From: Halichondria panicea
Taxonomy: Eukaryota; Porifera; Demospongiae; Suberitida; Halichondriidae
Direction of reading: 5' to 3'
NCBI RefSeq assembly: GCF_963675165.1
Contig: NC_087391.1
Location: forward strand, 1,259,001 to 1,323,000
Length of the DNA stretch: 64,000 nt
Position 1 is the first letter of the stretch. Each line of letters opens with the position of its first letter. The notes under the pieces were generated by a model. It was not told the origin of the DNA. It worked only from the letters and a program-made list of their open reading frames with translations, and made no database searches. Position numbers and translations under genes: made by a program. This document shows positions 203 through 63,310 of the stretch, one piece after another.

Positions 203-2748
203 ATGAAGGCTAAGATTGTACTACTTTGGAGTTTGGCAGTCTGTGTGTGTACTATTTCCACATCAGTGAGTTATGAGTAACATAGTAATGTAGAGTATTA
301 TTTATTTGCGTACTGAACTAGAAGGCCACTAGCTACATACACCAACTATTATCACTACAGGTGGAAGGTGAGTTCATACTGACAGTCAACTTGGTCAACT
401 ACACCAACCCAACCGGACTGTGTGCTGAATGTGAGAGACCGCTGAATACAGGCTATCCTACAAACACAATACCAGTGTGTTGTGATGAACAACCATTCAA
501 ATCTGGCAACTGTGACAACACAGGAGAGGGGAGATGTGACACAAGGTTCCGTTGGACCATCAGACGATTCGGTGCATCACTAGAGACAAAACCCAGCATG
601 GGATACTTCTTCACAGACTGTACAATGTCCCCCAGCACTTGCCCATTCAGTGAAATGAGCACAACATTCGGTCAAGGTTCAACAGCACTACTAGGAGTAA
701 CACCCAATCCTCTACCTGTTTCAAGCTTATTCTGGACAGTAAGTTAATGTTCAATTCACCTACTATTATACTAATTGTGTTATAATATATACAGGGACGA
801 ATACAGTTCTTCATAGAAGCCATGGACAGTAGACTCCCGAACATAATAGACAGTCTGTTGATTGACCTGGACAACCTCCAACTTGGAGCAGACTTCACAG
901 AGGAGATGACATTCACTGGATTCCACAACATATCTAACATGACCATGAGATTCAGAGTCGAGTGCTCTCCTGGTTTCTGTGGACCTGACTGTAACACAAC
1001 ACCTCAGACCAATCCACGAGTGGCGACATGTCAAGCTGATGGCACTCTAACATGTACTGATAATCGATTTGAGCTTTCACCTCTTGTAGCCTGCAACGAC
1101 TGCCTCTATAATCTGGATATTACTACTGGCTGCTCCACTTGTGTACAGACCAACTATGACCCAGCCACCAATTGTACAGCCTGTCTTCCTGGATACGATA
1201 TTGACCAAAGCTGCTCAACATGTATCAATACAAACTATGATCCTGATACAAATTGCTCTACATGCATTATAGGTACAAGATATGATCCATTGACCAACTG
1301 TGCATCATGTTTGGACACAAACTTCAATCCTCTCAATGGTTGTACATCATGCTTGTTGGAACGCTACGACCTACAGACAAACTGCATCCAGTGCCTACCA
1401 GGCAGGGACATCACCTTAGACTGTACTAGTTGCCTACCCAACAGAGATCCCTCTACCAACTGCATCCAGTGCCTACCAGGCTGGGACATCACCTCAGACT
1501 GTACTAGTTGCCTAACCAACAGAGACCCAGTCACCAACTGCTCCCTCTGCCTACAACCAGACAGGTTCACTGATACAGACTGCAGTGTGTGTGCTCTACC
1601 AGGAGGGGACCCAGCAACACTCTGTCAAACATGCTTGGCCACTAACTTTGACCCTAACACAAATTGCTCTCAGTGCATAGGTAATCGTGATCATGGCTCC
1701 AGCTGCTCCACTTGTCTGCCTGGATATGATAGTAACCGTGACTGTGCAGTGTGTCTATCTGGACGAAACATATCCACAAAATGTACCACCTGTCTGTCTG
1801 GATTCACTGGCAGTAACTGTGAACCTGGTGAGTGCTATACAATACTATAGCCTACACAAAGTGTACTTATGTAACCGTCTGAATTAAAGCACCACTTTGT
1901 GAGACGGTATAAACAACAAATGAAGTCATGTTACTATAAGGGTGAACTGTCAAGTGGTGCTTATATTTGAATGAAGCTATAATTCAGACATTTACGATAT
2001 TGCTACATGCATACACTATAGTACTAATTACAGACTCTTCACTAAGTGTGGGACTGGTGGGTGGTATCGCTGGAGGAGTGGGTGGAGTTTTGCTGCTCAT
2101 CATTCTAGTAATGGCTGTGCTCCTCATCCTACTTACAGTCCGTATCAGAAAGAGTGGTAACAAAGACATCAGTACTGCCACTACTACAGGTGAGGCACTA
2201 GACACATCTAGCTATGCACTTGCTACATATAGAATACACGCAATGAAAGCACCGCGGGTGCTGATGCCTCAGTGGAGGTACCAAAGCTACATAACATAAA
2301 GCTACTAATAGCTAGCTTTTGTACACTTATAATTATCATGATGAACATTTTAAATTTTACTGCATGCAGAATCCAGGAAAACTTAAAGAGTGGGTAATGG
2401 TCGACGATGATTGTTGTTAAAAACGATCGATGCCAAAAGTTCAAGTCTAAAATTAATGGCTGCAAGTCAGCAGAGCCTTGCAGCTCTCTTCTCACTCTTG
2501 TAGCTACCAATAGCTAGCGTTCTAGTGCAGAGCTAACTACTAAGTAGAGTAGCAACACTCGGTGAACAAGTTTTGCTACGGACTCTTCCGAAACAGCAGC
2601 ACTGGCATTCTAAGTAAGCAAAACTAGGCATAACTCAAGAACAAAGCTTTATTTTGTAAATCCACGAATACTAATCCAAGAAAACATGACTAGAAACCTA
2701 TCAAAACTCTTACTTGCGCTTCAATGATCCTTGAGCAGCTGTAGCAGT

Positions 2749-2789
<41 letters not shown>

Positions 2790-3183
2790 TACACACACAC
2801 TACCGTATACCTCGCTTGCGCATGCGCACCGAGGTATAACAATGACACACTATGACTATAGCACTGCTCGAACTATGATCACATGCACTAGTCTGACCAC
2901 TATAGCTTAACTCCACACACATACAGGTAAAGTAGTTACAGAAGTCATGGAAATGAATCAAAATCCTGTGTATAGTATGAGTACAACTGAAACACCAACT
3001 ATGGACCATGAAGCTAACCACACCCACCAGTACGAGACTGTGGACACACCCATTGAAATGAATCAGAACCCTGTGTACAGTGCAACTAATGCTACTAATA
3101 TTGAAGCCGACTACTATGAGAACGATGGTCTGGGCCCAACAAGAAATGAGCAGCAACTGGAATACGATTATATTCAAGTGTGA
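203..3183 (+). CDS. Array gene 1: Notch-ligand-like (MNNL/DSL-like) CxxC-repeat transmembrane protein
   Basis: Exons are 203-265, 361-738, 795-1827, 2034-2189 and 2927-3183, all with GT..AG introns; the joined frame gives 628 residues. Residues 1-21 are a signal peptide. Residues about 22-175 resemble the MNNL domain of Delta/Jagged: an FILTVNLVNYTNPTGLC strand, a VCCD pair, CDTRFRW, a TALLGV segment and W..IQFFIEAMDS. Residues about 200-236 resemble a degenerate DSL domain (FRVECSPGFCGPDC, then TCQADGTLTC). From residue 247 there are 18 CxxC motifs spaced about 13 residues apart, ending in an EGF-like GFTGSNCE. A glycine-rich transmembrane helix spans about 498-527. The tail has two NPVY motifs, YETV, YYEN and a C-terminal YIQV. 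The start is the conserved ATG giving the signal peptide in every paralog. No second terminal exon is seen; the CUL7/9 duplicon follows. The Notch-ligand relationship is by pattern recognition and needs a profile search. Confidence 0.82.
2242..2442 (+). repeat. Interspersed repeat R1, copy in intron 4 of gene 1
   Basis: A roughly 200-bp repeat beginning ATGAAAGCACCGCGGGTGC and running to an AAACGATCGATGCC end. Related copies lie at 8311, 11850, 17414 and 38490, with an inverted copy near 21198. I cannot assign it to a known class. Confidence 0.5.
2752..2800. repeat. (AC)n microsatellite
   Basis: A dinucleotide AC run in intron 4 of gene 1, briefly interrupted by GAT. The equivalent stretch in gene 2 (around 12247-12280) is much shorter and interrupted. 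Confidence 0.9.
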
Positions 3184-3681: not shown

Positions 3682-4760
3682 TACTATACATGTACTGTGT
3701 ATACGTGTATAGTTATCTAACTGCTCAGAATTGTTGGTAGAATTGTTGATCTGTTTGAACAAAGTTTCGACTCAACTATGAGTTAGTCTTGCACTAAAAC
3801 GCTGGCTACAAGAGTGAGAAAAGAGCTGCAAAGTAAGCTGCACACTGCAACAGCCACTGTGAAAATTAACCTCTTGCAGATACGCCTAATATTGTGTCCG
3901 CATGCGCAAGCAGCCCCACGTGTGTGATACCTGATTTCTTCTTTTCTTCTTTCATGAGGTCCTGGTAGGCCACAAAACACTGCAATGCTACCACTATGTA
4001 CACAACTCTTTTTTCTGAACCCTGCTTTACAAGGTATACTAAGTTCCACAGTATACCTCCTCTGAGGCACTTTCCCCCTGTAGTTCCGATGTAGATCTTA
4101 TCAACTAGTGTCTAAAAATGCTTAAAGAGCTTACTTTACCCATATATACAATGTCACCATTCCCATCATATTTCAATTTGCATTACTCGTTGATAATGTA
4201 TGGAATTCACTGTAAATGCAAACATTTAATTTGTAACATACATTCCACCTAATTACTTCTTCTATTACACTCTAGAGCGAAGCAAAACATGCCCCAAGGC
4301 ATTAAGCACGGGGTGCTTGTGGGATTTATTTATCTATGGTACCATTATTTAAATCAGTGCATGGCAACACTTATCATTATTTTTAATATTATGACTGCCC
4401 CACTTCTCACACACATGCCCCCACTCACTGGAGTCAGCTGGTTTCTTCTCGTCCTCCGAGGGCAGTAAGTCCACCTGATGCCAGTACACCCAGTAGGCGT
4501 CCCCTAGCCCCTCCCACGTGACCTGGGCAGGGGGTGTGCCATCGTTTGTTTGTAGATATACCCCAAAGTCGCCCATGGAGACGGACTCGTAGGTCTCTCT
4601 GGCCCGAACCTTCATGCCGGGTTGCAGGACGGTCTTCACGTAACGACCGTACTCTCGATCAGAGAGGAAGTGGTCTCGTGATTTGTAAGGGTTCTTCTTC
4701 TCTTTGGCAGGCTGTGTAATGTTATACATGTACGTACGTGAAGTTACAATAGCAATTAAT

Positions 4761-5340: not shown

Positions 5341-5518
5341 TGGCTGCTACTATATTATAGGGATGAAGTAAGTACACTTATTAAGGAGAATCGTAAAATC
5401 TACTACACAAGTCAGTAATGAGACAGCAGGTCAGTTAGAGTACAATAAAATGTTCTACTCATTATTTCTAACCCTTTTTTTAAGTGCATAGAAGCTACGT
5501 ATATTGCCTGATACACCA

Positions 5519-5522
5519 CACA

Positions 5523-5558
<36 letters not shown>

Positions 5559-9480: not shown

Positions 9481-10663
9481 ATGATGATGAAGCATCTCTA
9501 GTACAAACATTTGTGGTTAATGGTGTCATGTGATTAGTGTATGACATAACGGAAAGGTCAACACATGCTACGACTCAGGCTAGGCTCAACATGAAGGCTA
9601 AGATTGTACTGCTTTGGAGTTTGGCAGTCAGTGTGTGTACAAGCTTCACATCAGTGAGTTGTATACAAACAACATAATTATTCAGTAAGGGCATTACTTA
9701 TATTTGAGTACTGAACTAGAAGGCCACTAGCTTTATACACCAACTATTATCACTACAGGTGGGAGGTGAGTTCATACTGACAGTCAACTTGGTCAACTAC
9801 ACCAACCCAACCGGACTGTGTGCTGAATGTGCTATTTCACTGAGTGATGTAACAAGTGCTGGCCAGTTAGTACCAGTGTGTTGTGATGATCAGCCACTCA
9901 AATCAGGCAACTGTGACAACACAGGAGAGGGGAGATGTGACACCAGGTTCCGTTGGACCATCAGACCATTCAGTGCATCACTAGAGACAAGACCCAGCAT
10001 GGGGTACTTCATAACAGACTGTACAATGTCCCCCAACACTTGCCCATTCAGTGAAATGAGCACAACATTCGGTCTAGGTCCAGCAACACTACTGGGAGTA
10101 ACACCCAATCCTCTACCTGTTTCAAGCACAGATTTAACCACGTGGACAGTAAGTTTATGTTCAATTTACCTACATCATTTTTAATTATTATTAACAGGGA
10201 CGAATACAGTTTTTTATAGAGCCAACTGATAGCGGACTCCCGAACATAATAGACAGTTTGTTGATTAACTTGGATGACCTCCAACTTGGAGCAGACTTCA
10301 CAGAGGAGACGACGTTCACTGGATTCCACAACGTATCTCACATGACCATGAGTTTCAGAGTCGAGTGTTCTCCTGGTTTCTGTGGACCTAACTGTGCCAC
10401 CACACCTCAGAACAATCCACGAGTGGTGACATGTCAAGCTGATGGCACTCTAATGTGTACTGATAACCGATTAGACCCTTCACCCCTTAATTGTAGCCTG
10501 CAACGACTGTCTCTATAACCTGGATATTACTACTGGATGTTCCACTTGCGTACAGACCAACTATGACCCAAATACTAACTGTGAATCATGCTTGGACACA
10601 AACTTCAATCCTTTCGATGGTTGTACATCATGTTTGTTGGAACTCTACAACCTACAGGCAAAC

Positions 10664-10875
10664 TGCACCCAGTGCCTACCCAACAGAGATCCCTCTACCA
10701 ACTGCACTCAGTGTCTACCCAACAGAGATCCCTCTACCAACTGTGCCCAGTGCCTACCCAACAGAGATCCCTCTACCAACTGCACTCAGTGTCAACCCAA
10801 CAGAGATCCCTCTATCAACTGTGCCCAGTGCCTACCCAACAGAGATCCCTCTACCAACTGCACCCAGTGTCTACC
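10664..10875 (+). repeat. 39-bp coding minisatellite in gene 2
   Basis: Five tandem 39-bp units, each encoding a C-x2-C-x(9) module of the type CTQCLPNRDPSTN. One unit has Gln instead of the leading Leu and one has Ile for Thr. Confidence 0.9.
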
Positions 10876-11359
10876 AGGCAGGGACATCACCTCGGACTGT
10901 ACTAGTTGCCTACCCAACAGAGACCCAGTCACCAACTGCTCCTTCTGCCTACAACCAGACAGGTTCACTGATACAGACTGCAGTGTGTGTGCTCTACCAG
11001 GAGGGGACCCAGCAACACTCTGTCAAACATGCTTGGCCACTAACTTTGACCCTAACACAAATTGCTCTGAATGCATAGGTAATCGTGATCTCGGCTCCAG
11101 CTGCTCCACTTGTCTGCCTGGATATGATAGTAACCGTGACTGTGCAGTGTGTCTATCTGGACGAAACATATCCACAAGATGTACCACCTGTCTGTCTGGA
11201 TTCACTGGCAGTAACTGTGAACCTGGTGAGTGCTATACAATACTATAGTCTACACAGGGTGTACTTATGTAAACGTCTGAATTAAAGCGCTTCTTTGTGA
11301 GACAATGTAAAGAACAAATGCGAAATGTCCAGTGGTGCTTATATTTGAGTGAAGCTATA

Positions 11360-11567
11360 CCGTATTACTAGAATATTTTGCAGATGAAAAACCTTTGCGA
11401 ATGAGCCAAATCAGCAGAAAAGTTGACCCTTTGCGATCTAACTATTGCGTTCTGGCAAGGATCGTGTGTATTTACTAGTTGGTTTTACGGATATTATTGT
11501 TGCGAATTGATCAACCATCGCAAAGTTCGCAAATATTTGATGCTCGCAAAACATTTTAGTAATACGG
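11360..11567. mobile_element. MITE M2 inserted in intron 3 of gene 2
   Basis: 208 bp with inverted ends CCGTATTACTAGAATATTTT and AAACATTTTAGTAATACGG, flanked by TA duplications (11358-11359 and 11568-11569). Paralogous introns (for example near 25560) read AAGCTATAATTCAGAC with no insert, a clean empty site. Confidence 0.85.
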
Positions 11568-11849
11568 TAATTCAGACATTCACGATAATCCTACATGCAT
11601 GCATACACTATAGTACTAGTTACAGAATCTTCACTCAGTGTGGGAGTGGTGGGTGGTATCGCTGGAGGAGTGGGTGGAGTTTTGCTGCTCATCATTCTAG
11701 TAATGGCCGTGCTCCTCATCCTACTTACAGTCCGTATCAGAAAGAGTGGTAACCAAGACATCAGTACTGCCACTACTACAGGTGAAGCACTAGACACATG
11801 TACTAGCTATGTACTTGCTATACATATAGAAATTGTTAAAATACACACA

Positions 11850-12005
11850 ATGAAAGCACCGCGGGTGCTGATGCCTCGGTAGAGGTGCCAAAGCTACATA
11901 ACATAAAGCTAGCTTTTATACACTTATAATTATCATGATGAACATTTTTAATTTTACTGCATGCAGAATCCAAAGAGTGGGTAATGATCGACAATAATTG
12001 TTGTG
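11850..12005 (+). repeat. Interspersed repeat R1 in intron 4 of gene 2
   Basis: Matches R1 in the same intron of gene 1, so it was present before the two genes separated. Confidence 0.45.
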
Positions 12006-13235
12006 AAGGGGCTGGAGTCGAGGCTAAGCTAAGTACTAAGTAGAGTAGCAACACTCGGTGAACAAATTTTGCTACGAACTCTTCTGAAAAGGCTGCAATG
12101 GCATTCCAAGTAAGCAAAACTAGGCATAACTCAGTAACGAAGCTTTATTTTGCAAATCCACGAATACTAATCCAAGAAAAAATGGCTAGAAACCTATCAA
12201 AACTATTACTTGCACTTCATTGATCCTCGAGCAGCTATAGCAGTCTACACACAGACACACGCACACACACAGACACACTACCGTATACCTCGCTTGCAAA
12301 TGCACACCGAGGCATAATAATGACACACTATGACTATAGCACTGCTTAAACTATGATCACATGCACTAGTCTGACCACTATAGCTTTAACTCCATACAGA
12401 TAAAGAAGTTACAGAAGTTATGGAAATGAATCAAAATCCCGTGTACAGTATGAGTACAACTGAAACACCAACTATGGACCATGAAGCTAGCCACACCCAC
12501 CAGTACGAGACTGTGGACACACCCATTGAAATGAATCAGAACCCTGTGTACAGTACAACCAATGCTACTAATATTGAAGCTGACTACTATGAGAACGATG
12601 GTCTGGGCCCAACGAGAAATAAGCAGCAACCGGAATACGATTATATTCAAGTGTGAAAACTGTACTACAACAAATAGCTTAGTGAATAACATTTGACTGC
12701 CTATGCATGTACGTTCAAGTAACCTTTGGTTTAGAATACATTTTCTAGTACTATAAATTATACATGTACTATGTGTAACTCTGCAGTCTCTCCAGAATTG
12801 TTGGTAGAATTGTTATCTGTTTGAACAAAGTTTCGACTCAACTATGAGTTAGTCTTGCACTAAAGCGCTAGCTACAAGAGTGAGAAAAGAGCTGCAAAGC
12901 TGCAAAGCAAGCTGCACACTGCAACAGCCACTGTGAACTTTAACCTCTTGCAGATACGCCTCTTTTTTTAAATACTGTGTCCGCATGCGCACGCAGCCCC
13001 ACGTGTGTGAGACCTTAATTTCTTCTTTTCTTCTTTTATGAGGTCCTGGTAGGCCACAAAACAATGCAATGCTACCACCATGTACACAACTCTTTTTTCT
13101 GAAATGCTTAAACCCTGCTTTACAAGATATACTAATTTCCACAGTATACCTGCTCTGAGGCAAGTTCCCCCTGTAGTTCCGATGTAGATCTTATCAACTA
13201 GTGTCTAAAAATGCTTAAAGAGCTTACTTTACCTA

Positions 13236-19515: not shown

Positions 19516-21932
19516 ATGAAGATCAAATTTGCTTTGTTTTGGAGTGTGGCAGTCAGTGTGTGTGCAAGTTTCACCACAGTGAGTTAAAATTGTAAAAGCT
19601 TTAAGAAGCACAGTTAATTAATTATTACACAGGTGAGAGCTGATTTTGTATTAACAGTCAATTTTATCAACTACACCAACCCAACCGGACTGTGTGCTGA
19701 ATGTGCTGTTCCACTGAGTGATGTGGCAAGTGCTGACCAGCTATTCCCAGTGTGCTGTGATGATCGGCCACTCAGAAACACCAACTGTGACAACACAGGA
19801 GAGGAGAGTTGTGACACCAGGTTCCGTTGGAACATCAGACCATTCGCTGCATCACTGGAGACAAGACCCAGTGCTGCATCCAATCCTGGCAATCCTTCTA
19901 ATTACTTCTTCACAAACTGTCCAACCTCACCCAACTCTGTTTGCCCATTCCCCCAAGTGAGCACAACATTTCCCCAAGGCCCACTAGGTTTCCTGGGTGT
20001 AGCAGCCAACCCTCTACCAGTGATGTCAAGCACAGTGTGGACAGTAGGTTACTTAGTCATTGAGGGATAATAGTGTAATTATGATTTCTTCAGGAACAAA
20101 CACAGTTCTTCATAGAAGCTGTGGACAGTGGACTCCCGAACATAATAGACAGTCTGTTGATTGACCTGGACAACCTCCAACTTGGAGCAGACTTCACAGA
20201 GGAGATGACGTTCACTGGATACCACAACATATCTAACATGACCATGAGTTTCAGAGTCGAGTGCTCGCATGGTTTCTGTGGATCTGACTGTACCACCACA
20301 TCTCAGAACAACCCACGAATGGTGACATGTCAAGCTGATGGCACTCTAACTTGCTATGACAACTTTGACCCTAATACAAGCTGTACTGAGTGTGTGGATA
20401 ACTACAATCTAACCACCAACTGCACGTCTTGTCTATTTGGACGAAACATATCCACAAGATGTACCACCTGTCTGCCCGGGTATGATAGTAACCGTGACTG
20501 TACAGTGTGTTTATCTGGACGAAAAATATCCACAAGATGTACCACCTGTCTGTCTGGATTCACTGGAAGTAACTGTGAACCTGGTGAGTGCTATACAATA
20601 ATATTGTATAGTCAACATAAAGTGTACTTATTTCTACTACAGACTCTTCACTCAGTGTGGGAGTGGTGGGTGGTATCGCTGGAGGAGTGGGTGGAGTTTT
20701 GCTGCTCATCATTCTAGTAATGGCCGTGCTCCTACTTACAGTCAGTATCAGAAAGAGTGGTAACCAAGACATCAGTACTGCCACTACTACAGGTGAAGCA
20801 CTAGACACATGAACTAGCTATGCACTTGCTACATAAAGGCTTCAGAAATTGTCATTGAAAATATAAGAGGATGTAGGACACACTTAACCTTTGGTGACCT
20901 TTCAATTAACATTACAGTTGTCAATAATTATACAGAGGCTATAAAAAAAGAGAAGATAAACATTTTATCCATCAGGGGGAAAAGCTCTTGTTCACCTAGT
21001 GTACGTAACAGAGCCACTGTTCCCCCAGTTTGTGCCCGCTTTCCGATAAACTATTCCAACAGTTAGCTAATTCTGTTGACCCTCTAGATGGTTTTGGTAC
21101 TGATTCTTGTCTAAAGGGTGTAGATCTTTAGCTTTAGAATTTTGTGTATCAATATGATTGTGTAACGTTGATGCAGCCATACTTGAACTTTTGGCATAGA
21201 TCGTTTTTAACAACAGTAATGGTCGATCATTACCCACTCTCTGAGTTTGCATGCTAATGTGTGTATTATGTTATTAGCTTTGGCACCTCCACCGTGGCAT
21301 CAGCACCCGTGAAACATCCATCTTCTCTTTTCTTTTTATAGCCTCCTTTTAAAAGGTCACCAAAGGTTAAGTGTGTCTTACATCCTCTGATGTGCCCGAA
21401 GTCTCCATTCCATGTAACTGAATCAATTCCAATCATTTTTCCTATGTACTTTCCCATTTCAAGCCCACAGCTATCACTGCCCGTGCATCCAGTTTCATTG
21501 ATGCACCCATTTTTTGAGTTGTGGTTACAGTTTTGTCAGTTGTGGTTACAGTTTTGTGGGTTGTGGTCATAATTTTGTGAACTTCTGCTTCTAATTTTTG
21601 CATTCCTATTTTGGCACTGATTACACACCATAATGATCACGTATACTAGTCTGACCACTATAGCTTTAACTACAGATAAAGAAGTTACAGAAGTCATGGA
21701 AATGAATCAAAATCCCGTGTACAGTATGAGTACAACTGAAACACCAACTATGGACCATGAAGCTAACCACACCCACCAGTACGAGACTGTGGACACACCC
21801 ATTGAAATGAATCAGAACCCTGTGTACAGTGCAACCAATGCTACTAATATTGAAGCTGACTACTATGAGAACGGTGGTCTGGGCCCAACAAGAAATGATC
21901 AGCAACTGGAATACGATTATATTCAAGTGTGA
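19516..21932 (+). CDS. Array gene 3: short class-B Notch-ligand-like transmembrane protein
   Basis: Exons 19516-19578, 19633-20043, 20094-20583, 20643-20792 and 21676-21932; 456 residues. With gene 9 it forms class B: the signal peptide begins MKIKFALFW, exon 2 begins VRADFVLTVNFINYTN, the loop before YFFTNC is longer than in class A, and only five CxxC motifs follow the DSL-like segment. Exon 4 lacks two codons in the transmembrane helix (LL rather than LIL). Intron 3 is only about 60 bp. The tail repeats the two NPVY motifs, YETV and YIQV. A phase-compatible alternative last exon lies at 22208-22443 and would give 449 residues. The start is the ATG preceding the conserved hydrophobic leader. 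Confidence 0.82.
20865..21389. mobile_element. Inverted-repeat element in intron 4 of gene 3
   Basis: Ends AGGATGTAGGACACACTTAA and TTAAGTGTGTCTTACATCCT form inverted repeats that extend through CCTTTGGTGACCTTT and a GGCTATAAAAA stretch, about 80 bp per arm with gaps. The interior includes an inverted piece of repeat R1 (about 21198-21310). No credible coding frame. Confidence 0.65.
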
Positions 21933-22207
21933 AAGTACAACAAACACCTTATAGCAATAATGTACACATACAGACACAAAAATTAAACACGTATAATATA
22001 ATTATTACTTACGATTTTACTATTAATCATTGACTATACTGGGAGTCTATATATAAACAAGAGGCTCATTCAACACATGGGTATGTTCTGGGACATCAGA
22101 AAACTGCTAACGTACAATAGCTAGTTTAGTCCTCAACGCAAACTTACACACATGATATTATTTACAACAAATTCAAATACATGTACTGAATATCCACTCC
22201 CACACAG

Positions 22208-22443
22208 ACCCAGCGGACATTGAGGTGGTAGAGAATACAGTGTATGGAGTGGGCACTCCTGACACGAGACAGCGCACCACAACTGGTGGTATTGAGCTGA
22301 AGCCTAATCTAGTGTACAGTAACATAGCAGCAGACCATGGCAACCAAACTGAGCAAAATGGAGACCACCCTCATGGACAATCTACACTACATATAGCTAT
22401 ACTTGCGATGTGTACATGTACTGGCTCCAGAAATTGTTATTGA
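22208..22443 (+). CDS. Alternative 3' tail exon of gene 3
   Basis: Acceptor CACACAG then ACCCAGCGGACATTG. It joins the phase-1 end of exon 4 as DPADIEVVENTVYGV, continues with PDTRQRTTTGGIELKPN, LVYSNI and AADHGNQTEQNGDH, and stops at 22443. It carries Tyr motifs VYGV and YSNI but no NPVY. The conserved coding block among paralogs ends near NGDH, so the true exon end could be a donor or stop not settled here. Use as an alternative to exon 5 is inferred from phase and conservation. Confidence 0.6.
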
Positions 22444-43720: not shown

Positions 43721-46155
43721 ATGAAGGCTACGATTGTGCTACTTTGGAGTTTGGCAGTCTGTGTGTGCTTGTACACATCAGTGAGTTATGAGTAACATGT
43801 TAATGTAGAGCATTATTTATTTGCGTACTGAGCTAGAAAGTCGCTAGCTATACACCAACTATTATCACTACAGGTGGAAGGTGAGTTCATACTGACAGTC
43901 AACTTGGTCAACTACACCAACCCAACCGGATTGTGTGCTGAATGTGCTGTTCCACTGAGTTTTGTAGCAAGTGCTGACCAGTTAGTACCAGTGTGCTGTA
44001 ATGATCGGCCACTCAGAAATACCAACTGTAACAACACAGGAGAGGAGAGATGTGACACCAGGTTCCGTTGGACCATCAGACCATTCAGTACATCGCTAGA
44101 GACAAGATCCCCCAGTATGCCCAATGCTGTCAACCTTCCCTATTTCTTCACAGACTGCACAATGTCCCCCAGCACTTGCCCATTCAGTGAAACAAGCACA
44201 ACATTCGGTCAAGGTCCAACAGCACTACTGGGAGTAGCACCCAATCCTCTACCTGTTTCAAAAGTAGATTTTACTATGTGGAAAGTAAGTTTATGTAACA
44301 TTTCACATACACCATTTTTAATATCGAAAAACAGGGACGAATTCAGTTCTTCATAGAAGCTGTGGACAGTAGACTCCCAAACATAATAGACAGTCTATTG
44401 ATTGACCTGGACAACCTCCAACTTGGAGCAGACTTCACAGAGGAGATGACGTTCACTGGATTTCACAACATATCTCATATGACCATGAGTTTCAGAGTCG
44501 AGTGCTCTCCAGGTTTCTGTGGATCTGACTGTATCACCACGCCTCTGAACAATCCACGAGTGGTGACATGTCAAGCTAATGGCACTCTAACGTGTACTGA
44601 TAATCAATTAGACCCTTCACCTCTTGTAGCCTGCAACGACTGCCTCTACAACCTGGATATTACTACTGGCTGCTCCACTTGTGTACAGACCAACTATGAC
44701 CCAGCCACCAATTGCATAGCCTGCCTTTCTGGATACGATATTGACCAAAGCTGCTCAACATGTATCAATACAAACTATGATCCTGATATAAATTGCTCTA
44801 CATGCATTATAGGTACAAGATATGATCCATTGACCAACTGTGCATCATGTGTCGACATAAACTTCAATCCTTTCGATGGCTGTACATCATGTTTGTTGGA
44901 ATTCTACGATCTACAGGCAAACTGCACCCAGTGCCTTCCCTCTACCAACTGCATCCAGTGCCTACCCAACAGAGATCCCTCTACCAACTGCACCCAGTGC
45001 CTACCCAACAGAGATCCCTCTACCAACTGCATCCAGTGTCTACCAGGCTGGGACATCACCTCGGACTGCACTAGTTGTCTACCCAACAGAGACCCAGTCA
45101 CTAACTGCTCCCTCTGCCTACAATCAGACAGGTTCACTGATACAGACTGCAGTGTGTGTGCTCTACCAGGAGGAGACCCAGCAACACTCTGTCAAACATG
45201 TTTGGATAACTTCAATCCTACCTGCACTGCGTGTGTGGCTAACTATGATTTAAACATGAAATGCTCAAGCTGTCTGTTTGGCTATGATAGTAACCGTGAC
45301 TGTGTAGTGTGTCTTTCTGAGCGAAACATATCCACAAGATGTACCACCTGTCTGTCTGGATTCACTGGCAGTAACTGTGAACCTGGTGAGTGCTAATCAG
45401 CCTATAGTGTACTTAAATTAAAGCGCCACTTGTGAGACAGTGTAAAGAAACAAATGAAGCCATGTTACTATAAGGGCGAACTGCCCAAGTGTTGCTTATA
45501 TTGGAGTGAAGCTATAATTCAGACATTCAAGATATTCCTACATGCATACACTATAACAGAATCTTCACTAAGTGTGGGAGTGGTGGGTGGTATCGCTGGA
45601 GGAGTGGGTGGACTTTTGCTGCTCATCATTCTAGTAATGGCCGTGCTCCTACTTACAGTCCGTATCAGAAAGAGTGGTAACCAAGACATCAGTACTGCCA
45701 CTACTACAGGTGAAGCACTAGACACATGTATACTAGCTAAATCAATCTAGCTATGCACTTACTACATAATTATTGCGGCTTCAGAAATTGTCATTGTCCA
45801 GAATATAAAACACACAAGGTATTATACACTGACTATATCACTGCTCGAACTATGATCACATGCACTAGTCTGACCACTATAGCTTTAACTCTATACAGAT
45901 AAAGAAGTTACAGAAGTTATGGAAATGAATCAAAACCCCGTGTACAGTATGAGTACAACTGAAACACCAACTACAGACCATGAAGCTAACCACACCCACC
46001 AGTACGAGACTGTGGACACACCCATTGAAATGAATCAGAACCCTGTGTACAGTGCAACCAATGCTACTAATATTGAAGCTGGCTACTATGAGAACAATGG
46101 TCTGGGCCCAACAAGAAATGAGCAGCAACCGGAATACGATTATATTCAAGTGTGA
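43721..46155 (+). CDS. Array gene 7: Notch-ligand-like CxxC-repeat transmembrane protein
   Basis: Exons 43721-43780, 43874-44284, 44335-45385, 45560-45709 and 45899-46155; 642 residues. The leader is one codon shorter than in the others. The MNNL-like domain mixes class A (VEGEFILTVNLVNYTN) with class B features (LRNTNC, a longer loop before YFFTDC); in CCNDRP the usual Asp is Asn. The conserved Trp-Thr before the exon 2 donor is Trp-Lys. There are 19 CxxC motifs, one in a truncated unit (CTQCLPSTNC), and DNFNP/LFGYD units as in gene 4. The helix has the LL form. The tail reads AGYYENNG. Its alternative tail exon (51377-51654) is now over 5 kb away because of the pogo-like insertion and other repeats. 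Confidence 0.82.
44925..45045 (+). repeat. 39-bp coding minisatellite in gene 7
   Basis: Three units, the first shortened to CTQCLPSTN by an in-frame loss. Confidence 0.85.
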
Positions 46156-52725: not shown

Positions 52726-54860
52726 ATGAAGACTAAGATTGTACTACTTTGGAGTTTGGCAGTCTGTGTGTGTACAAGTTTCACATCAGTGAGTTGTACA
52801 CGAACGACATAGTAAATGCATTACTTATTTACGTACTGAACTAAAAGGCCCCTAGCTTTATACACCAACTATTATCACTACAGGTGGGAGGTGAGTTTAT
52901 ACTGACAGTCAACTTGGTCAACTACACCAACCCAACCGGACTGTGTGCTGAATGTGCTATTACACTGAGTGATGTAACAAGTGCTGACCATTTAGTACCA
53001 GTGTGTTGTGATGAGCTACCATTTAAATCAGGCAACTGTGACAACACAGGAGAGGAGAGATGTGACACCAGGTTCCATTGGATCATCAGACCATTCGGTG
53101 CATCACTAGAGACAAGACCCAGCATGGGGTACTTCTTCACAGATTGTACAATGTCCCCCAGCACCTGCCCATTCAGTGAAATGAGCACAAGATTTGGTCA
53201 AGGTCCAACAGCACTACTGGGAGTAACAGAAAATCCTCTACCTGTTTCAAAAACAGATATTACTGTATGGACAGTAAGTTCATGTTCATTACACATACCA
53301 TTTCCAATTATTTATATACATGCATGCATGTAGGGGCAGATTCAGTTTCTTATAGAAGCTGTGGATAGTGGACTACCAAACAGAATAGACAGTTTGTTAA
53401 TTGACCTGGACAACCTCCAGCTTGGAGCAGACTTTACAGAGGAGATGACGTTCACTGGATTCCACAATATATCTCACATGACCATGAGTTTCAGAGTCGA
53501 GTGCTCTCTTGGTTTCTGTGGACCTGACTGTAAGACCACACCTCTGAACAATCTACGAGTGGCGACATGTCAAGCTGATGGCACTCTAACATGTACTGAT
53601 AACCGATTAGACCCTTCACCTCTTGTAGCCTGCAACGACTGCCTCTACAACCTGGATATTACTACTGGCTGCTCCACTTGCGTACAGATCAACTATGACC
53701 CAATCACCAACTGTACAGCCTGCCTTCCTGGATACAATATTGACCAAAGCTGCTCAACATGTATCAGTACAAACTTTAATCGTGATACAAATTGCTTTAC
53801 ATGCGTGAATAATCGCGATCTCGGCTCCAGCTGCTCCACTTGTTTGCCTGGATATGATAGTAACCGTAACTGTACAGTGTGTCTATCTGGACAAAACATA
53901 TCTACAAGATGTACCACCTGTCTGTCTGGACTCACTGGCAGTAACTGTGAACCTGGTGAGTGCTATACAATAGTATAGTCACTGAATTAAAGCACCACTT
54001 TGTGAGACAGTGTAAAGAAACAAATGAAGTCATGTTACTATAAGGGCGAACTGCCCAAGTGTTGCTTATATATTGGAGTGAAGCTATAATTCAGACATTC
54101 ACGATATTGCTATATGCATACACTATAGTACTAATTACAGACTCTTCACTAAGTGTGGGAGTGGTGGGTGGTATCGCTGGAGGAGTGGGTGGAGTTTTGC
54201 TGCTTATCATTCTAGTGATGGCCGTGCTCCTCATCCTACTTACAGTCCATATCAGAAAGAGTGGTAACCAAGACATCAGTACTGCCACTACTACAGGTGA
54301 AGCACTAGACACATGCACTAGCTACATAGTGGCTTCATTGATACACGCAACAATTAATGAAGTATTATACACACCATGACTATAACACCGTTCAATTCTA
54401 CAATACACAACAATTAATACACTATAGCACTGCTCAATTCAAACTATGATCACACGTACACCACTTCACAGTAGAGCATGCACTCAGCTGCTCTAGGGGA
54501 GGATTCCCAACAATAAGATAGTTACTAGTCTGACCACAATAGGTTTAACTTCATACAGATAAAGAAGTTACAGAAGTTATGGAAATGAATCAAAATCCCA
54601 TGTACAGCATGAGTACAACTGAAACACCAACTACGGACCACGAAGCCATACAAACACATCCTAACATAGTCTACGGGATGAACACTGAAGCTAACCACAC
54701 CCACCAGTACGAGACTGTGGACACACCCATTGAAATGAATCAGAACCCTGTGTACAGTGCAACCAATGCTACTAATATTGAAGCTGACAGCTATGAGAAT
54801 GATGGTCTGGGCCCAACAAGAAATGAGCAGCAACCGGAATACGATTATATTCAAGTGTGA
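52726..54860 (+). CDS. Array gene 8: Notch-ligand-like transmembrane protein with a longer tail
   Basis: Exons 52726-52788, 52884-53273, 53334-53955, 54141-54296 and 54559-54860; 510 residues. The leader and MNNL-like domain are class A, close to gene 10. Only eight CxxC motifs remain, and the 39-bp minisatellite is absent. Exon 5 is 45 bp longer than in all other genes. The extra 15 residues (around THPNIVYGMNTEA) add a tyrosine motif between the first NPVY-like motif (NPMY here) and YETV. The usual YYEN is SYEN. The alternative tail exon (55913-56031) is frame-shifted. Confidence 0.82.
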
Positions 54861-56540: not shown

Positions 56541-58145
56541 ATGAAGATCAAATTTGCTTTGTTTTGGAGTGTGGCAGTCAGTGTGTGTGCAAGTTTCACC
56601 ACAGTGAGTTAAATTGTAAAAGCTTTAAGATGCACAGTTAATTAATTACTACACAGGTAAGAGCTGATTTTGTATTAACAGTCAATTTTATCAACTACAC
56701 CAACCCAACCGGACTGTGTGCTGAATGTAGTGTTTCACTGAGTAATGTAGCAAGTGCTGACCAGCTAGTACCAGTGTGTTGTGATGATCTACCACTCAGA
56801 AACACCAACTGTGACAACACAGGAGAGGAGAGTTGTGACACCAGGTTCCATTGGACCATCAGACCATTCGCTGCATCACTGGAGACAAGACCCCCCAATG
56901 TACCCCTTCCTGGCAACCCTCCTAATTACTTCTTCACAGACTGTTCAACCTCACCCAACTCTGTTTGCCCATTCCCCCAAGTGAGCACAACATTCCCCCA
57001 AGGCCCACTAGGATTTCTGGGTGTAGCAGCCAACCCTCTGCCAGTGGTGTCAGGAACAATGTGGACAGTAAGTTACTTAATCATTGAGGGTAAAGAGTGT
57101 AATTGCGATTTCTTCAGGGACAAACACAGTTCTTCATAGAAGCTGTGGACAGTAGACTCCCGAACATAATAGACAGTCTATTGGTTAACCTGGACAACCT
57201 CCAACTTGGAGCAGACTTCACAAAGGAGATGACGTTCACTGGATACCACGACGTATCTCACATGACCATGAGTTTCAGAGTCGAGTGCTCACCTGGTTTC
57301 TGTGGATCTAACTGTACCACAAATGATCCACAAATGGCAACATGTCAAACTGATGGCACTTTAACTTGCTATGACAACTTCGACCTTAATACAAGCTGTA
57401 CTGAGTGTGTGGTTAACTACGATCTAACTACCAACTGCACGTCTTGTCTGTTTGGACGAAACATATCCACAAGATGTACCACCTGTCTGTTTGGATTCAC
57501 TGGCAGTAACTGTGAACCTGGTGAGTGCTATACAATACTATAGTCTACACAGAGTGTACTTATTTCTACTACAGAATCTTCACTAAGTGTGGGAGTGGTG
57601 GGTGGTATCGCTGGAGGAGTGGGTGGAGTTTTGCTGCTCATCATTCTAGTAATGGCCGTGCTCCTACTTACAGTCCGTACCAGAAAGAATGGTAACCAAG
57701 ACATCAGTACTGCCACTACTACAGGTAAAATACTAGACACACCTAGCTAAGCAAATGCTACTTATTATAGTGTCTTCAGAAAATGTCATTGTCCAAAATA
57801 TAAAACATACAAGGTATTATACACTGACTATAGCACTGCTCAATTCAAGGTATGATCACATGCACTAGTCTGCTTTAACTCCATACAGATAAAGAAGTTA
57901 CAGAAGTTATGGAAATGAATCAAAATCCCGTGTATAGTATGAGTACAACTAAAACACCAACTACGGACTATGAAGCTAACCACACCCACCAGTACGAGAC
58001 TGTGGACACACCCATTAAAATGAATCAGAACCCTGTGTACAGTGCAACCAATGCTACTAATATTGAAGCTGACTACTATGAGAACGATGGTCTAGGCCCA
58101 ACAAGAAATGAGCAGCAACCGGAATACGATTATGTTCAAGTGTGA
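56541..58145 (+). CDS. Array gene 9: shortest class-B Notch-ligand-like transmembrane protein
   Basis: Exons 56541-56603, 56657-57067, 57118-57520, 57575-57724 and 57889-58145; 427 residues. Very close to gene 3 in leader, MNNL-like domain and short introns, but only three CxxC motifs remain (CTEC, CTSC, CTTC) before FTGSNCE. The DSL-like segment has lost the TTPQ stretch (CTTNDPQMATC). In exon 4 the charged stretch reads RTRKNGNQ. In the tail, KTPTTDYEA adds a Tyr and IKMNQ replaces IEMNQ. An alternative tail exon lies at 58843-59165. Confidence 0.82.
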
Positions 58146-59752: not shown

Positions 59753-62700
59753 ATGAAGGCTAAGATTGTACTACTTTGGAGTTTGACAGTCTGTGTGTGT
59801 ACAAGTTTCACATCAGTGAGTTATATACAAACGACATAGTAAATGCATTACTTATTTACGTACTGAACTAAAAGGCCCCTAGCTTTATACACCAACTATT
59901 ATCACTACAGGTGGGAGGTGAGTTTATACTGACAGTCAACTTGGTCAACTACACCAACCCAACCGGACTGTGTGCTGAATGTCAGACTAGACTGATCAAT
60001 ATAACAAGTGCTGACCAGCTAGTACCAGTGTGCTGTGATGAGCTACCATTCATATCTGGCAACTGTGACAACACAGGAGAAGAGAGATGTGACACCAGGT
60101 TCCATTGGATCATCAGACCATTCGGTGCATCACTAGAGACAAGACCCAGCATGGGGTACTTATTCACAGACTGTACAAAGTCCCCCAGCACTTGCCCATT
60201 CAGTGAAATGAGCACAGCATTCGGTCTAGGTCCAACAGCACTACTGGGAGTAACATCCAATCCTCTACCTGTTTCAGGTTTTACTATGTGGACAGTAAGT
60301 TCATATTTATTCATATACAATTTGAGTTTTAACTCTTTATATAGGGTCGAACACAGTTCTTTATCGAAGCATTGGACAGCATGCTGACGAACGTAATAGA
60401 CAGTCTGTTGATTGACCTGGACAACCTCCAACTTGGAGCAAACTTCACAGAGGAGATGACATTCACTGGACTCCACAACGTATCTCACATGACCATGAGT
60501 TTCAGAGTCGAATGCTCTCCTGGTTTCTGTGGATCTGACTGTTTCACCACACCTCAGAACAATCCACGAGTGGCGACATGTCAAGCTGATGGCACTCTAA
60601 CATGTACTGATAACCGATTAGACTCTTCACCTCTTGTAGCCTGCAACGACTGCCCCTACAACCTGGATATTACTACTGGCTGCTCCACTTGCGTACAGAC
60701 CAACTATGACCCAACCACCAATTGCACGGCCTGTCTTCCTGGGTACGATATTGGTCAAAGCTGCTTAACATGTATCAATACAAACTTTGATCCTGATGCA
60801 AATTGCTCCACATGCATTATAGGCACCAACTGTGCATCATGTTTGGACACACATTTCAATGGCTGTACAACATGTTTATTGGAATTCTACGACCTACAGA
60901 CAAACTGCACCCAGTGCCTACCCAACAGAGATCCCTCTACCAACTGCACCCAGTGCCTACCCAACAGAGATCCGTCTACCAACTGCACCCAGTGCCTACC
61001 CAACAGAGATCCGTCTTCTACCAACTGCACCCAGTGCCTACCCAACAGAGATCCCTCTACCAACTGCACTCAGTGCCTACCCAACAGAGATCCCTCTACC
61101 AACTGCACCCAGTGCCTACCCAACAGAGATCCCTCTACCAACTGCACTCAGTGCCTACCTAACAGAGATCCCTCTACCAACTGCACCCAGTGTCTACCCA
61201 ACAGAGATCCCTCTACCAACTGCACCCAGTGTCTACAACCAGACAGGTTCACTGATACAGACTGCAGTGTGTGTACTCTACCAGGAGGGGACCCAGCAAC
61301 ACTCTGTCAAACATGTTTGGCCACTAACTTTGACCCTAACACAAATTGCTCTGAATGTGTAGGCAATTATGATCTCGGCTCCAGCTGCTCCACTTGTCTG
61401 CCTGGATATGATAGTAACCGTGACTGTACAGTGTGTTTATCTGGACGAAACATATCCACAAGATGTACCACCTGTCTGTCTGGATTCACTGGCAGTAACT
61501 GTGAACCTGGTGAGTGCAATTATTTGTGAGACAGTGTAAAGAAACAAATGATCTCATGTTACTATAAGGGTGAAATGTCCAAGTGGTGCTTATAGAGCTA
61601 TAATTCAGACATTCATGATAATACTACATTACTAGTACTAATTACAGACTCTTCACTAAGTGTGGGAGTGGTGGGTGGTATCGCTGGAGGAGTGGGTGGA
61701 GTTTTGCTGCTCATCATTCTAGTAATGGCCGTGCTCCTCATCCTACTTACAGTCCGTATCAGAAAGAGTGGTAACCAAGACATCAGTACTGCCACTACTA
61801 AAGGTGAAGCACTAGACACATGCACTTGCTACAATGGCTTCAGAAATTGTCATTGAAAAAGAGTGCCAGAATATAAAATACACACGGTTATAGTTATACT
61901 ATGGTTCTAGGGATTTATGGCAGTAAACCCACCAAGCACGAGGGCGAGGTGTGGTTTACGTTGCCATAAATCCCTAGCAACCATAGTATGAGTGTTATAT
62001 ATCCTATGTGATTGGCTAGCTATAATTGCGCATTTACTCCTCTACCATGGTAACTCACGTTTAAACATCAGAAAGTAAAAAGAAAGCATTGTGGAAAAGC
62101 TTGCTCTGTCAATAGCTAGCTAGCTACAGGTACTATTGCTTACCGTTCGACACCCCCACCCTGACTCCTCCTCCATGACTAAAGCCTCACAAACTGCTAA
62201 AGCCACCCATACCCACAGAGCTGGAGCCAGACAGTGCGCAGTGCAGTGCCAAGGCTCCCAGGCTTCCACTAGCACTAGTCGAGCGCCGCCGCCTTCCCTG
62301 AAGGACACCGGTAGAGGGCGGCGGCGCCCGACTACACTAGCACTTGGACTGCACTAGCTTTCTAGCTTGAGAATCTCTTATCAAGTGCCTCACTATCATC
62401 TCCTCACTATCTTTTACTTAAATCTAGCGCTACAGTAGTTTCTACTGCAGTAAAGCAACCAAACATATTTAATATGTGGCAACCTGCACAAATTAAAAGT
62501 AGACAATAATTATTATCTACATGATCTTGTAGCAAACATGTCTGGGGAAATATCAGAGGGAATTATCCCCTGGCCATATCCTAGCAACTGCATGAAAACA
62601 GGATATATAAAGTGTTATTTCGTATAGCTAGTTATTTTCGAGGCACTACATTTTCGCAGTTTTTGCGGATGGACCTGAACGTTGGAAAATTAGTGCTTCG

Positions 62701-63310
62701 AAAATTTGGAATCATTGCTTACTTCCGGTATTGAAATACCTCCCTTACTATAAGGGTGTGGTCATTTGAATCTCATCTTCGAAAAAAAGTTTAGTTTGAG
62801 CAATCTGCGAAAATTTAGTGCCTTGAAAATAACCTGCTGTACGTTATACCTTTATATCATGTTGTCTATAACGTGTAATAAAAGCCAGGTTGCCTCGAGG
62901 CATGATTTGAAAACACATAATTAGCATGAGAATCATCGTGTTTTATGCACTATAATAATATAGGCAACTCAGTCTCATGCTATATCTATTACTTATATCC
63001 CTGCTCAAACTATGATCACATGTCTGACCCCCCTAATTCGCTTTAACTCCATACAGATAAAGTTACAGAAGTCATAGAAATGAATCAAAATCCCGTGTAT
63101 AGTACGAGTACAACTGAAACACCAACTATGGACCATGAAGCTAACCACACCCACCAGTACGAGACTGTGGATACACCCATTGAAATGAATCAGAACCCTG
63201 TGTACAGTGCAACCAATGCTACTAATATTGAAGCTGACTACTATGAGAACGATGGTCTGGGTCCAACAAGAAATGAGCAGCAACCGGAATACGATTATAT
63301 TCAAGTGTGA
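59753..63310 (+). CDS. Array gene 10: Notch-ligand-like protein with the purest CxxC repeat array
   Basis: Exons 59753-59815, 59911-60294, 60345-61509, 61648-61803 and 63057-63310; 673 residues. Class A, with the loop after GLCAEC reading QTRLINITSADQLVP. There are 22 CxxC motifs, including eight near-identical CTQCLPNRDPSTN units, one with an extra Ser (PSSTN). Exon 4 ends ATTKG as in gene 5. Exon 5 lacks one Glu codon (DKVTEVIEM) but is otherwise standard. Intron 4 is enlarged to 1.25 kb by hairpin elements and a MITE. CUL7/9 copy d follows and no alternative tail exon is seen. Confidence 0.82.
60906..61230 (+). repeat. 39-bp coding minisatellite in gene 10
   Basis: Eight tandem units, most differing by zero to two bases, built on CTACCCAACAGAGATCCC. 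One unit carries an in-frame TCT insertion (PSSTN). The high identity implies recent expansion or homogenisation. Confidence 0.92.
61890..61996. repeat. Hairpin element in intron 4 of gene 10
   Basis: Arms ATACTATGGTTCTAGGGATT and AATCCCTAGCAACCATAGTA extend through TTATGGCA..TGCCATAA to about 45 bp each, around a GC-rich loop. Confidence 0.75.
62215..62355. repeat. GC-rich hairpin in intron 4 of gene 10
   Basis: GTCGAGCGCCGCCGCC and GGCGGCGGCGCCCGAC pair, with flanking CTAGCACTAG and CTAGCACTTG lengthening the arms. Base composition is very unlike the AT-rich neighbourhood. Confidence 0.7.
62620..62843. mobile_element. MITE with TATTTTCGAGGCACTA ends
   Basis: Left CGTATAGCTAGTTATTTTCG and right GAAAATAACCTGCTGTACG form inverted ends; AGGCACTA and TAGTGCCT pair further in. 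Related to the M1 and B repeats. Confidence 0.6.

What the first reader, a model, noticed from the sequence alone, without database searches (positions are those of the whole stretch)
203..63310. Tandem array of ten Notch-ligand-like surface proteins
Seen: ten same-strand paralogs with identical five-exon structure and matching splice phases. Their ectodomain pattern (NxxGLC near a first strand, CC pair, CDTRFRW, LLGV, W..FFIEA, then FRVEC..C..TCQADGTLTC) follows the MNNL plus DSL order of Delta/Jagged. Known: animals usually have few Notch ligands, with DSL followed by EGF repeats. Inference: this is a lineage-specific expansion of a Delta-like family in which EGF modules were replaced, possibly a diversified cell-cell recognition system rather than canonical Notch ligands.
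Basis: partly seen in the sequence, partly recalled or inferred. Interest (0 to 1): 0.9.

Follow-up and report, generated by a model that had tools for sequence, protein, structure and literature searches.

The report
Delta-derived hypervariable surface-protein array
An animal genome (thought to be a sponge) carries dozens of tandem cell-surface genes that descend from the Notch ligand Delta but have lost its Notch-binding parts and vary most in one exposed loop, which suggests that a developmental signal was turned into a variable recognition system.

Summary
Ten same-strand genes share five exons with intron phases 0,0,1,1; nine are open, gene 2 is frameshifted. They belong to at least 44 places in the genome, 42 on one contig. 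Profile comparison with six canonical Deltas of the same genome gives E 4e-18 over the C2-DSL region; reversed and shuffled controls give 0.06-0.6. The phase-0 intron after the MNNL tryptophan sits at the same place in 6 of 6 Deltas, and canonical ligands lie within 18 kb of three family sites. EGF repeats are replaced by 13-residue Cys repeats, probably multiplied from the DSL end. In 24 of 24 members examined, DSL cysteine 3, the Notch-binding DSL loop and the strand-2 cysteine are gone, while C2 calcium aspartates mostly stay. One apical loop has dN/dS 1.67 against 0.35 for the framework. Similar ectodomains carry unrelated tails in different clusters. Most likely this is a diversified, non-Notch surface-recognition family. 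Function, polymorphism and species were not testable; both structure predictions failed.

The parts
203..3183 (+). Gene 1; exons 203-265, 361-738, 795-1827, 2034-2189, 2927-3183 (628 aa)
   Evidence: GT-AG introns, phases 0,0,1,1
433..474 (+). Gene 1 hypervariable loop (between CAEC and VCC; in the beta1-2 apical loop by alignment to Delta/Jagged)
   Evidence: dN/dS 1.67 over 24 genes, bootstrap 1.16-2.36; alignments; coordinates counted from the start of exon 2
963..1055 (+). Gene 1 remodelled DSL-like domain (from the C of FRVEC to TCQADGTLTC)
   Evidence: profile alignment; cysteine table
1056..1827 (+). Gene 1 Cys-repeat stalk; 9 units of exact C-x9-C-x2-C spacing and 18 CxxC pairs, counted from the DSL start
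9591..12656 (+). Gene 2; exons 9591-9653, 9759-10148, 10198-11225, 11626-11781, 12400-12656; frame broken in exon 3 near 10485
19516..21932 (+). Gene 3; exons 19516-19578, 19633-20043, 20094-20583, 20643-20792, 21676-21932 (456 aa)
23809..26195 (+). Gene 4; exons 23809-23871, 23958-24371, 24424-25405, 25617-25772, 25939-26195 (623 aa)
28944..31264 (+). Gene 5; exons 28944-29006, 29101-29490, 29560-30502, 30696-30836, 31008-31264 (597 aa)
39767..42518 (+). Gene 6; exons 39767-39829, 39937-40323, 40373-41756, 41967-42122, 42262-42518 (748 aa; longest repeat array of the nine open genes, 18 exact units)
43721..46155 (+). Gene 7; exons 43721-43780, 43874-44284, 44335-45385, 45560-45709, 45899-46155 (642 aa)
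52726..54860 (+). Gene 8; exons 52726-52788, 52884-53273, 53334-53955, 54141-54296, 54559-54860 (510 aa)
56541..58145 (+). Gene 9; exons 56541-56603, 56657-57067, 57118-57520, 57575-57724, 57889-58145 (427 aa; only 3 exact repeat units)
59753..63310 (+). Gene 10; exons 59753-59815, 59911-60294, 60345-61509, 61648-61803, 63057-63310 (673 aa)
22207..22383 (+). Possible alternative 3' tail exon ('5b', DPADIEVVENTVYG...KPNLVYSN) with a phase-1 acceptor; further copies start at 18894, 42783, 51376, 55912 and 58842, a weak one (53% identity) at 27241
   Evidence: acceptor inspected for the copy at 22207 only; use as an exon not tested

Best explanation
Shown: the ten genes belong to a multigene family derived from Delta. 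The ectodomain is a divergent Notch-ligand C2 (MNNL) region plus a remodelled DSL region. EGF repeats are not detected; in their place stands a stalk of 13-residue Cys repeats of very variable length. Inferred: (1) the stalk arose by tandem multiplication of the DSL end (like CFQGYMDPSTNCTQC), a motif present in 3 of 6 canonical Deltas of the same genome and in a short-form family member; (2) both Notch-contact sites are lost, so the proteins do not engage Notch in the canonical way; (3) the C2 apex, with conserved calcium aspartates and a long, fast-evolving beta1-2 loop, is the working end and contacts a variable partner (surface protein, glycan or lipid) on an apposed cell or microbe; (4) tyrosine-rich tails (two NPxY, YEN and a C-terminal YDYIQV or YDYVQV in the window; an unrelated tail of up to about 390 residues in cluster 2) pass the signal inward, and ectodomain exons are exchanged among clusters so that similar heads sit on different tails. 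This resembles the logic of paired recognition-receptor families. Confidence by step: Delta ancestry about 0.95; loss of canonical Notch binding about 0.8; diversified recognition about 0.5.
For: hhalign, 12 family members vs 6 Deltas: Prob 99, E 4.2e-18, score 116.3, 175 columns; reversed Deltas score 14.7, best of 20 column shuffles 18.4. The six Deltas match MNNL 6/6 and DSL 6/6 in Pfam and fly Delta, DLL1 and Jagged-1 chains at 9e-37, 1.9e-34 and 2e-32. Phase-0 intron right after W-x in 6 of 6 Deltas and in 10 window and 14 cluster-2 genes. Direct tblastn of family exon 3 to Delta exons at C15:2178387 (1.1e-6) and C15:2184773 (3.6e-6). Synteny: Deltas at C15:2178-2185k next to the 14-gene cluster, a ligand gene at C15:1340.7k about 18 kb past the window, an MNNL match at C15:53.4k 16 kb from the member at 37k. 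Losses and retained columns. Loop dN/dS 1.67 (1.16-2.36), 1.42 with same-length pairs only, framework 0.35. Tails. Ectodomain tree mixes clusters; window as one clade rejected, AU p 0.008. Repeat seam; short form. One Notch-like LNR gene found.
Against: Pfam detects neither MNNL nor DSL convincingly in the family. Both AlphaFold runs failed, so the C2 fold is not shown. The seam motif is absent in 3 of 6 Deltas. dN/dS is pairwise Nei-Gojobori on 24 paralogues: pairs are not independent, the loop has indels, gene conversion is not modelled, and the three other variable stretches give 1.09, 0.38 and 1.11 with intervals that include or lie below 1. The ectodomain tree is weakly supported (2 of 21 inner branches starred) and cluster labels are partly grouped on it (5 changes against a shuffled mean of 8); similar dS within and between clusters could also come from a burst of duplication. 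No expression, polymorphism or binding data. Notch interfaces of this animal may differ from those of fly and human.
Confidence: 0.55

Rival explanations
1. They are still Notch ligands or Notch modulators (for example cis-inhibitors or decoys) that tune the Notch receptor of this animal, with divergence of contact residues tolerated.
For: Delta ancestry; one Notch-like LNR receptor found; C2 calcium aspartates kept. A sponge Delta without EGF repeats, AmqDelta4, is on record (PMC3482393, first of six parts read). Divergent C. elegans ligands are recalled.
Against: 24 of 24 lack DSL Cys3, the G-H-Y stretch of the Notch-binding loop, the second tyrosine of YYG and the strand-2 cysteine; a single substitution in that loop (Jagged-1 F207A, fly Delta F204A) abolishes Notch binding (passages of PMC3888931 and PMC8490980). 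Dozens of copies with one fast-evolving apical loop are odd for a developmental ligand.
Confidence: 0.2
2. Ordinary copy-number drift: tandem duplication with gene conversion and relaxed constraint, no recognition role; loop variation is neutral.
For: Gene 2 is frameshifted; one of the 44 places is a fragment and one is in two pieces; some cluster-2 frames break off (K7, K8); CUL7/9-like fragments recur between the genes.
Against: 9 of 10 window genes are open; framework dN/dS 0.35, exon 3 0.30, tail 0.32; the loop's bootstrap interval lies above 1; all 10 tails keep 2 NPxY, YEN and YDY[IV]QV.
Confidence: 0.15
3. A recognition family, but for gametes, larval settlement or microbes rather than for self and non-self.
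For: Same sequence evidence as the main reading: a fast loop, a stalk of variable length, signalling-type tails.
Against: Nothing here points to gametes, larvae or microbes; no expression data.
Confidence: 0.2
4. The ectodomain is not related to Notch ligands; the resemblance is a Cys-spacing coincidence.
For: No useful Pfam or PDB sequence hit of the family alone.
Against: E 4.2e-18 against controls at 0.06-0.6, same intron position and phase, synteny, 24 of 38 Delta-conserved columns kept in at least 90% of 24 members.
Confidence: 0.02

Closest known systems
Delta/Serrate/Lag-2 (DSL) Notch ligands, Delta type (Pfam MNNL PF07657 + DSL PF01414)
   Same: Signal-peptide-like start, C2/MNNL then DSL order, one TM-like segment, tyrosine-rich tail; same phase-0 intron; 24 of 38 Delta-conserved columns
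   Different: No convincing Pfam match, no EGF detected, DSL Cys3, YYG second tyrosine and Notch-binding loop lost, strand-2 Cys lost, two extra Cys in the apical loop, 13-residue repeat stalk, at least 44 places
AmqDelta4 of Amphimedon queenslandica (PMC3482393)
   Same: A sponge Delta without EGF repeats
Cnidarian DSL-only and MNNL+3xDSL genes (PMC2770060, passages)
   Same: Notch-ligand domains in non-canonical arrangements
   Different: They repeat whole DSL domains; here a 13-residue unit resembling the DSL end is repeated. This genome also has two places with three DSL matches in a row on C4
Allorecognition gene families (Hydractinia, Botryllus fuhc, sponge aggregation factor; recalled, and seen as titles and abstract starts)
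   Same: Works like: many or highly variable surface proteins with signalling tails
   Different: Other ectodomain folds (recalled); polymorphism and function are not shown here

Membership tests
DSL Notch ligands | MNNL/C2 domain by curated profile (PF07657) | tested here: not met
   0 of 12 ectodomains at E<=10; genome search with MNNL gives 29 matches, none in the window
DSL Notch ligands | C2-DSL region homologous to Delta by profile-profile comparison, with controls | tested here: met
   E 4.2e-18, 175 columns; reversed and 20 shuffled controls E 0.06-0.6
DSL Notch ligands | DSL domain with six Cys and a YYG motif | tested here: not met
   Cys3 0 of 24; second Tyr of YYG replaced by Cys in 24 of 24; Pfam DSL in 2 of 12, best E 8.8, and E 1.1 in the short-form member
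DSL Notch ligands | Notch-binding DSL loop (Jagged-1 F207 / fly Delta F204 region) | tested here: not met
   G-H-Y columns 0 of 24; role of F207/F204 from passages
DSL Notch ligands | EGF repeats after DSL | tested here: not met
   No EGF family in Pfam scans of three full proteins; 13-residue repeats instead. A lone EGF-like end (CLSGFTGSNCE) before the TM is seen by eye
DSL Notch ligands | Gene structure shared with genuine Deltas | tested here: met
   Phase-0 intron after W-x in 6 of 6 Deltas and in 10 window and 14 cluster-2 genes
DSL Notch ligands | C2 calcium-site aspartates as in Jagged-1 (D72, D140); per PMC5538765 not conserved in DLL1/DLL4, so not defining for all ligands | tested here: met
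   CDT invariant in 12 of 12; D140 column 23 of 24 (0.96); numbering by counting on chain 4cbz; PMC5538765 passage
DSL Notch ligands | C2 fold in a structure model | tested here: inconclusive
   AlphaFold mean pLDDT 31.1 on a query that contains 20 intron residues
DSL Notch ligands | Binds and activates Notch | not testable with these tools
   needs a binding or co-culture assay
Variable recognition-receptor array | Tandem paralogues with a positively selected loop on a conserved framework | tested here: met
   Loop 1.67 (1.16-2.36) vs framework 0.35; pairwise method, caveats in the Against line
Variable recognition-receptor array | Population polymorphism and a recognition phenotype | not testable with these tools
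   one assembly only

The most novel reading that the evidence does not exclude
An animal turned a Notch ligand into a self/non-self (allorecognition-type) system: dozens of Delta-derived heads with a hypervariable C2 apical loop, length-variable stalks grown from the DSL end, and exchangeable signalling tails, freed from Notch. It would be a variable recognition family built on the Notch-ligand C2-DSL scaffold rather than on Ig, LRR or lectin folds.
Probability: 0.3. Interest if true: 0.95.

Novelty: new variant of a known kind. Interest (0 to 1): 0.8.

Why it matters
Notch ligands are a core developmental toolkit, and ligand counts per genome in the passages I saw are small (five Deltas in the sponge Amphimedon, called remarkably high for a non-bilaterian; seven in a snail; PMC2770060). 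A branch of at least 44 Delta-derived places that has shed its Notch contacts while one apical loop evolves fast would show how a cell-contact signal can be recruited for recognition. If the animal is a sponge, it gives concrete candidate genes for the old question of how sponges tell self from non-self. It also offers a case of a repeat module apparently born from the end of a domain, and of heads exchanged between arrays with unrelated tails.

Tried and rejected
Pfam and PDB sequence searches of the family alone found nothing useful; the answer came from canonical Deltas of the same genome used as a bridge. AlphaFold was tried on the C2-DSL region and on the repeats; both failed, so no fold search was run. 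Scans of the genome contigs and viral contigs collections found no relative; these are collections of prokaryotes and viruses and say little about animals. NOD (PF06816) found no Notch (nothing rang in its control genomes either), LNR (PF00066) did. The idea that the repeats came from another gene was tested: the listed matches (150 of 200 candidates scored, list cut) lie in family loci except two on C12 with 47% identity, E 3.8e-8 and five stops inside each, which I did not follow. A first fragment alignment for folding was misaligned and dropped. A recent whole-cluster copy of the window was rejected by the AU test, with the caveat that recombination violates a single tree. I looked for the species among sponge genome notes (listing and abstract starts only) and saw no 131 Mb assembly there.
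Full report
What was checked. The window is C15:1259001-1323000 of a 131 Mb assembly in 39 contigs. Gene models built from open frames, GT..AG sites and homology give ten plus-strand genes with five exons each: a signal-peptide-like exon (20-21 codons), an MNNL-like exon (378-414 nt), a large exon (403-1384 nt), a TM-like exon (141-156 nt) and a tail exon (254-302 nt). Phases are 0,0,1,1 in nine; gene 2 carries a short insertion in exon 3 that breaks its frame. Signal peptide and TM were judged by eye.

Size of the family. The exon-2 peptide of gene 1 finds 45 matches at E<=1e-3, which make 44 places: 10 in the window, 15 at C15:1.07-1.13 Mb (one a 29-residue fragment, one in two pieces), 14 at C15:2.19-2.305 Mb, 2 at C15:1.92-1.96 Mb, 1 at C15:37 kb and 2 on C6. 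Counts are lower bounds by the tool's statement. MNNL gives 29 matches and DSL 26 in the genome, none of them in the window family. LNR gives three matches in two genes: a Notch-like one on C10 (EGF repeats plus LNR) and one on C17 that looks like a GlcNAc-phosphotransferase (identified by eye).

Is it Delta? Pfam says almost nothing: no family at E<=10 for three joined proteins; among 12 ectodomains no MNNL, and DSL in two at best E 8.8, with a few unrelated chance families of better E-value. The bridge is the canonical Deltas of the same genome. Six were read by eye from open frames; all six match MNNL and DSL in Pfam, and their profile matches fly Delta, DLL1 and Jagged-1 chains at 9e-37, 1.9e-34 and 2e-32. 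Against a profile of these six, the family (9 window and 3 cluster-2 sequences) aligns over 175 columns from the first C2 strand to the DSL end at E 4.2e-18, score 116.3. The reversed Delta alignment scores 14.7 and the best of 20 column shuffles 18.4. Pairwise identity is 24-31 per cent. All six Deltas have a phase-0 intron directly after the W-x of the MNNL domain; in five the next exon opens with G-x-x-[QE], in the sixth with INYDF. The family has the intron at the same residue and phase. Family exon 3 also hits Delta exons directly by tblastn (1.1e-6 and 3.6e-6). Two Deltas lie immediately beside the 14-gene cluster, one ligand gene about 18 kb past the window, and an MNNL match 16 kb from the C15:37 kb member. 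Descent from Delta is as good as shown.

What changed. Of 38 columns conserved in at least 5 of 6 Deltas, 24 are kept in at least 90% of 24 family members (10 window, 14 cluster 2; the last two 'lost' columns lie beyond the point where I trimmed the family). Lost in 24 of 24: the strand-2 cysteine, the second tyrosine of YYG (now Cys), DSL cysteine 3 and the G-H-Y stretch. In known ligands the long beta2-3 loop is Notch site 1, held by a disulphide to strand 2 (passage of PMC5538765), and one substitution in the DSL loop (F207A in Jagged-1, F204A in fly Delta) abolishes Notch binding (passages of PMC3888931 and PMC8490980). Both sites are thus remodelled. Kept: the aspartates at the Jagged-1 D72 and D140 positions, which coordinate calcium at the C2 apex; CDT in 12 of 12, the D140 column in 23 of 24, numbering by counting on chain 4cbz. 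These aspartates are not conserved in DLL1 and DLL4. Gained: two cysteines in the apical loop (24 and 23 of 24) and one in the beta2-3 region (24 of 24).

The stalk. After the DSL-like part come units of C-x9-C-x2-C, typically CLPNRDPSTNCTQ: 3 to 18 exact units in the nine open window genes and 2 to 52 in the 14 cluster-2 genes as far as the open frame runs (gene 2 counts 0 because its frame is broken; K7 and K8 break off early). The longest open frame is 862 codons in K13; a C6 member has one of 731 codons. A like motif ends the DSL domain of three canonical Deltas: CFQGYMDPSTNCTQC, CKPGYTDESTNCVQC, CLEGFNNTSTNCTQC. Against 2000 shuffles of each sequence these matches are reached 0, 8 and 6 times; the other three Deltas show none (reached 218 to 1152 times). 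The C15:37 kb member is a short form whose DSL still ends CVPGWDPHKNCSEC, followed by one further unit. I infer that the stalk grew from the DSL end. Outside family loci the repeat search listed only two stop-containing places on C12 (list cut).

Variation and selection. Over 24 genes, pairwise Nei-Gojobori dN/dS is 1.67 in the loop between CAEC and VCC (bootstrap 1.16-2.36; 1.42 with the 72 pairs of equal loop length), 1.09, 0.38 and 1.11 in three other variable stretches, and 0.35 (0.23-0.52) in the exon-2 framework. Exon 3 C2/DSL is 0.30, the window tail 0.32, the window TM exon 0.62. Sixteen random exon-2 codons reach the loop value in 0.3% of 5000 draws. By alignment to fly Delta and Jagged-1 the loop lies between strands 1 and 2, the apical loop that takes part in phospholipid binding in known ligands and varies between them. 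Pairs are not independent and gene conversion is not modelled, so this is good but not final evidence.

Heads and tails. The window tail (two NPxY, YET, YEN and a C-terminal YDY[IV]QV in 10 of 10) recurs in the 1.07-1.13 and 1.92-1.96 Mb clusters and gave no match in the 2.19-2.305 Mb cluster (local tblastn); a C6 tail resembles it by eye. The 14 genes of the 2.19-2.305 Mb cluster carry another tyrosine-rich tail of up to about 390 residues with no match in the window. Thirteen of these tails are 68-97% identical to each other in best local matches, while the tail of the gene next to the Deltas (K14) is only 28-48% identical to them, although its ectodomain dS to the rest (0.22-0.24) is like that among the others (0.20-0.26). 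The ectodomain tree mixes the two clusters and rejects one clade for the window (AU p 0.008, quick tree), but only 2 of 21 inner branches are strongly supported and the labels are partly grouped (5 changes, shuffled mean about 8). I infer exchange or conversion of ectodomain exons between arrays.

What it most likely does. Shown: Delta-derived proteins with a TM-like segment, under purifying selection over most of their length, with one apical loop above 1. Inferred: contact of that loop with a variable partner, and signalling through tyrosine motifs that recall PTB- and SH2-binding sites (motif meanings recalled, not tested). Canonical Notch binding is unlikely but untested. A self/non-self role is the boldest reading (0.3).

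Limits. Species identity and sponge origin are untested. Structure predictions failed. Literature: the searches listed no title describing such a family; I read the first of six parts of PMC3482393 and passages of PMC2770060, PMC3888931, PMC8490980 and PMC5538765. The library holds open-licence papers only.

Noticed in passing
window 4349-7308, 13624-16162, 32454-37224, 63700-63999 (minus strand): Recurring frames of a CUL7/CUL9-like gene between the array genes (two frames tested: CUL7_CUL9_N 3.7e-9 at 6686-7033, Cul7 5.1e-21 at 13624-14025; the other copies by likeness), apparently duplicated with them.
   Followed up: partly
window 18894, 22207, 42783, 51376, 55912, 58842 (weak copy 27241): Extra tail-like exon 'ENTVYG...KPNLVYSN', related by eye to exon 5; possible alternative 3' exon giving a second tail.
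   Followed up: partly
window 47487-48470 (+) and 48730-50093 (-): An ORF with a weak HIRAN match (1.2e-5), and minus-strand frames one of which matches DDE_1 (3.4e-7); probably a mobile element between genes 7 and 8.
   Followed up: partly
G000 C4:5457205-5457588 and C4:5594023-5594406: Two places with three DSL matches in a row in one open frame, like the DSL-only genes reported from cnidarians.
   Followed up: no
G000 C12:1.815-1.869 Mb, C2:2.04-2.08 Mb, C6:3.99-4.03 Mb, C14:5.64-5.70 Mb: Further clusters of MNNL and/or DSL matches: canonical-type Notch ligands also look expanded in this genome.
   Followed up: no
cluster-2 gene K13 (L027, from C15:2198912 downward) and L048 (C6:5299501-5306500): Very long 13-residue repeat arrays: open frames of 862 and 731 codons.
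   Followed up: partly
exon 2 of genes 1 and 6, cluster-2 genes K2, K6, K11, and the C6 members: The hypervariable loop falls by eye into a few recurring types (for example RPLNTSYPTDT against PLSDVASADQL) shared across clusters, as if loops were shuffled.
   Followed up: no
G000 C12:5748508-5748678 and C12:5814801-5814971: Two stop-containing places with 47% identity to the 13-residue repeat outside the family loci.
   Followed up: no
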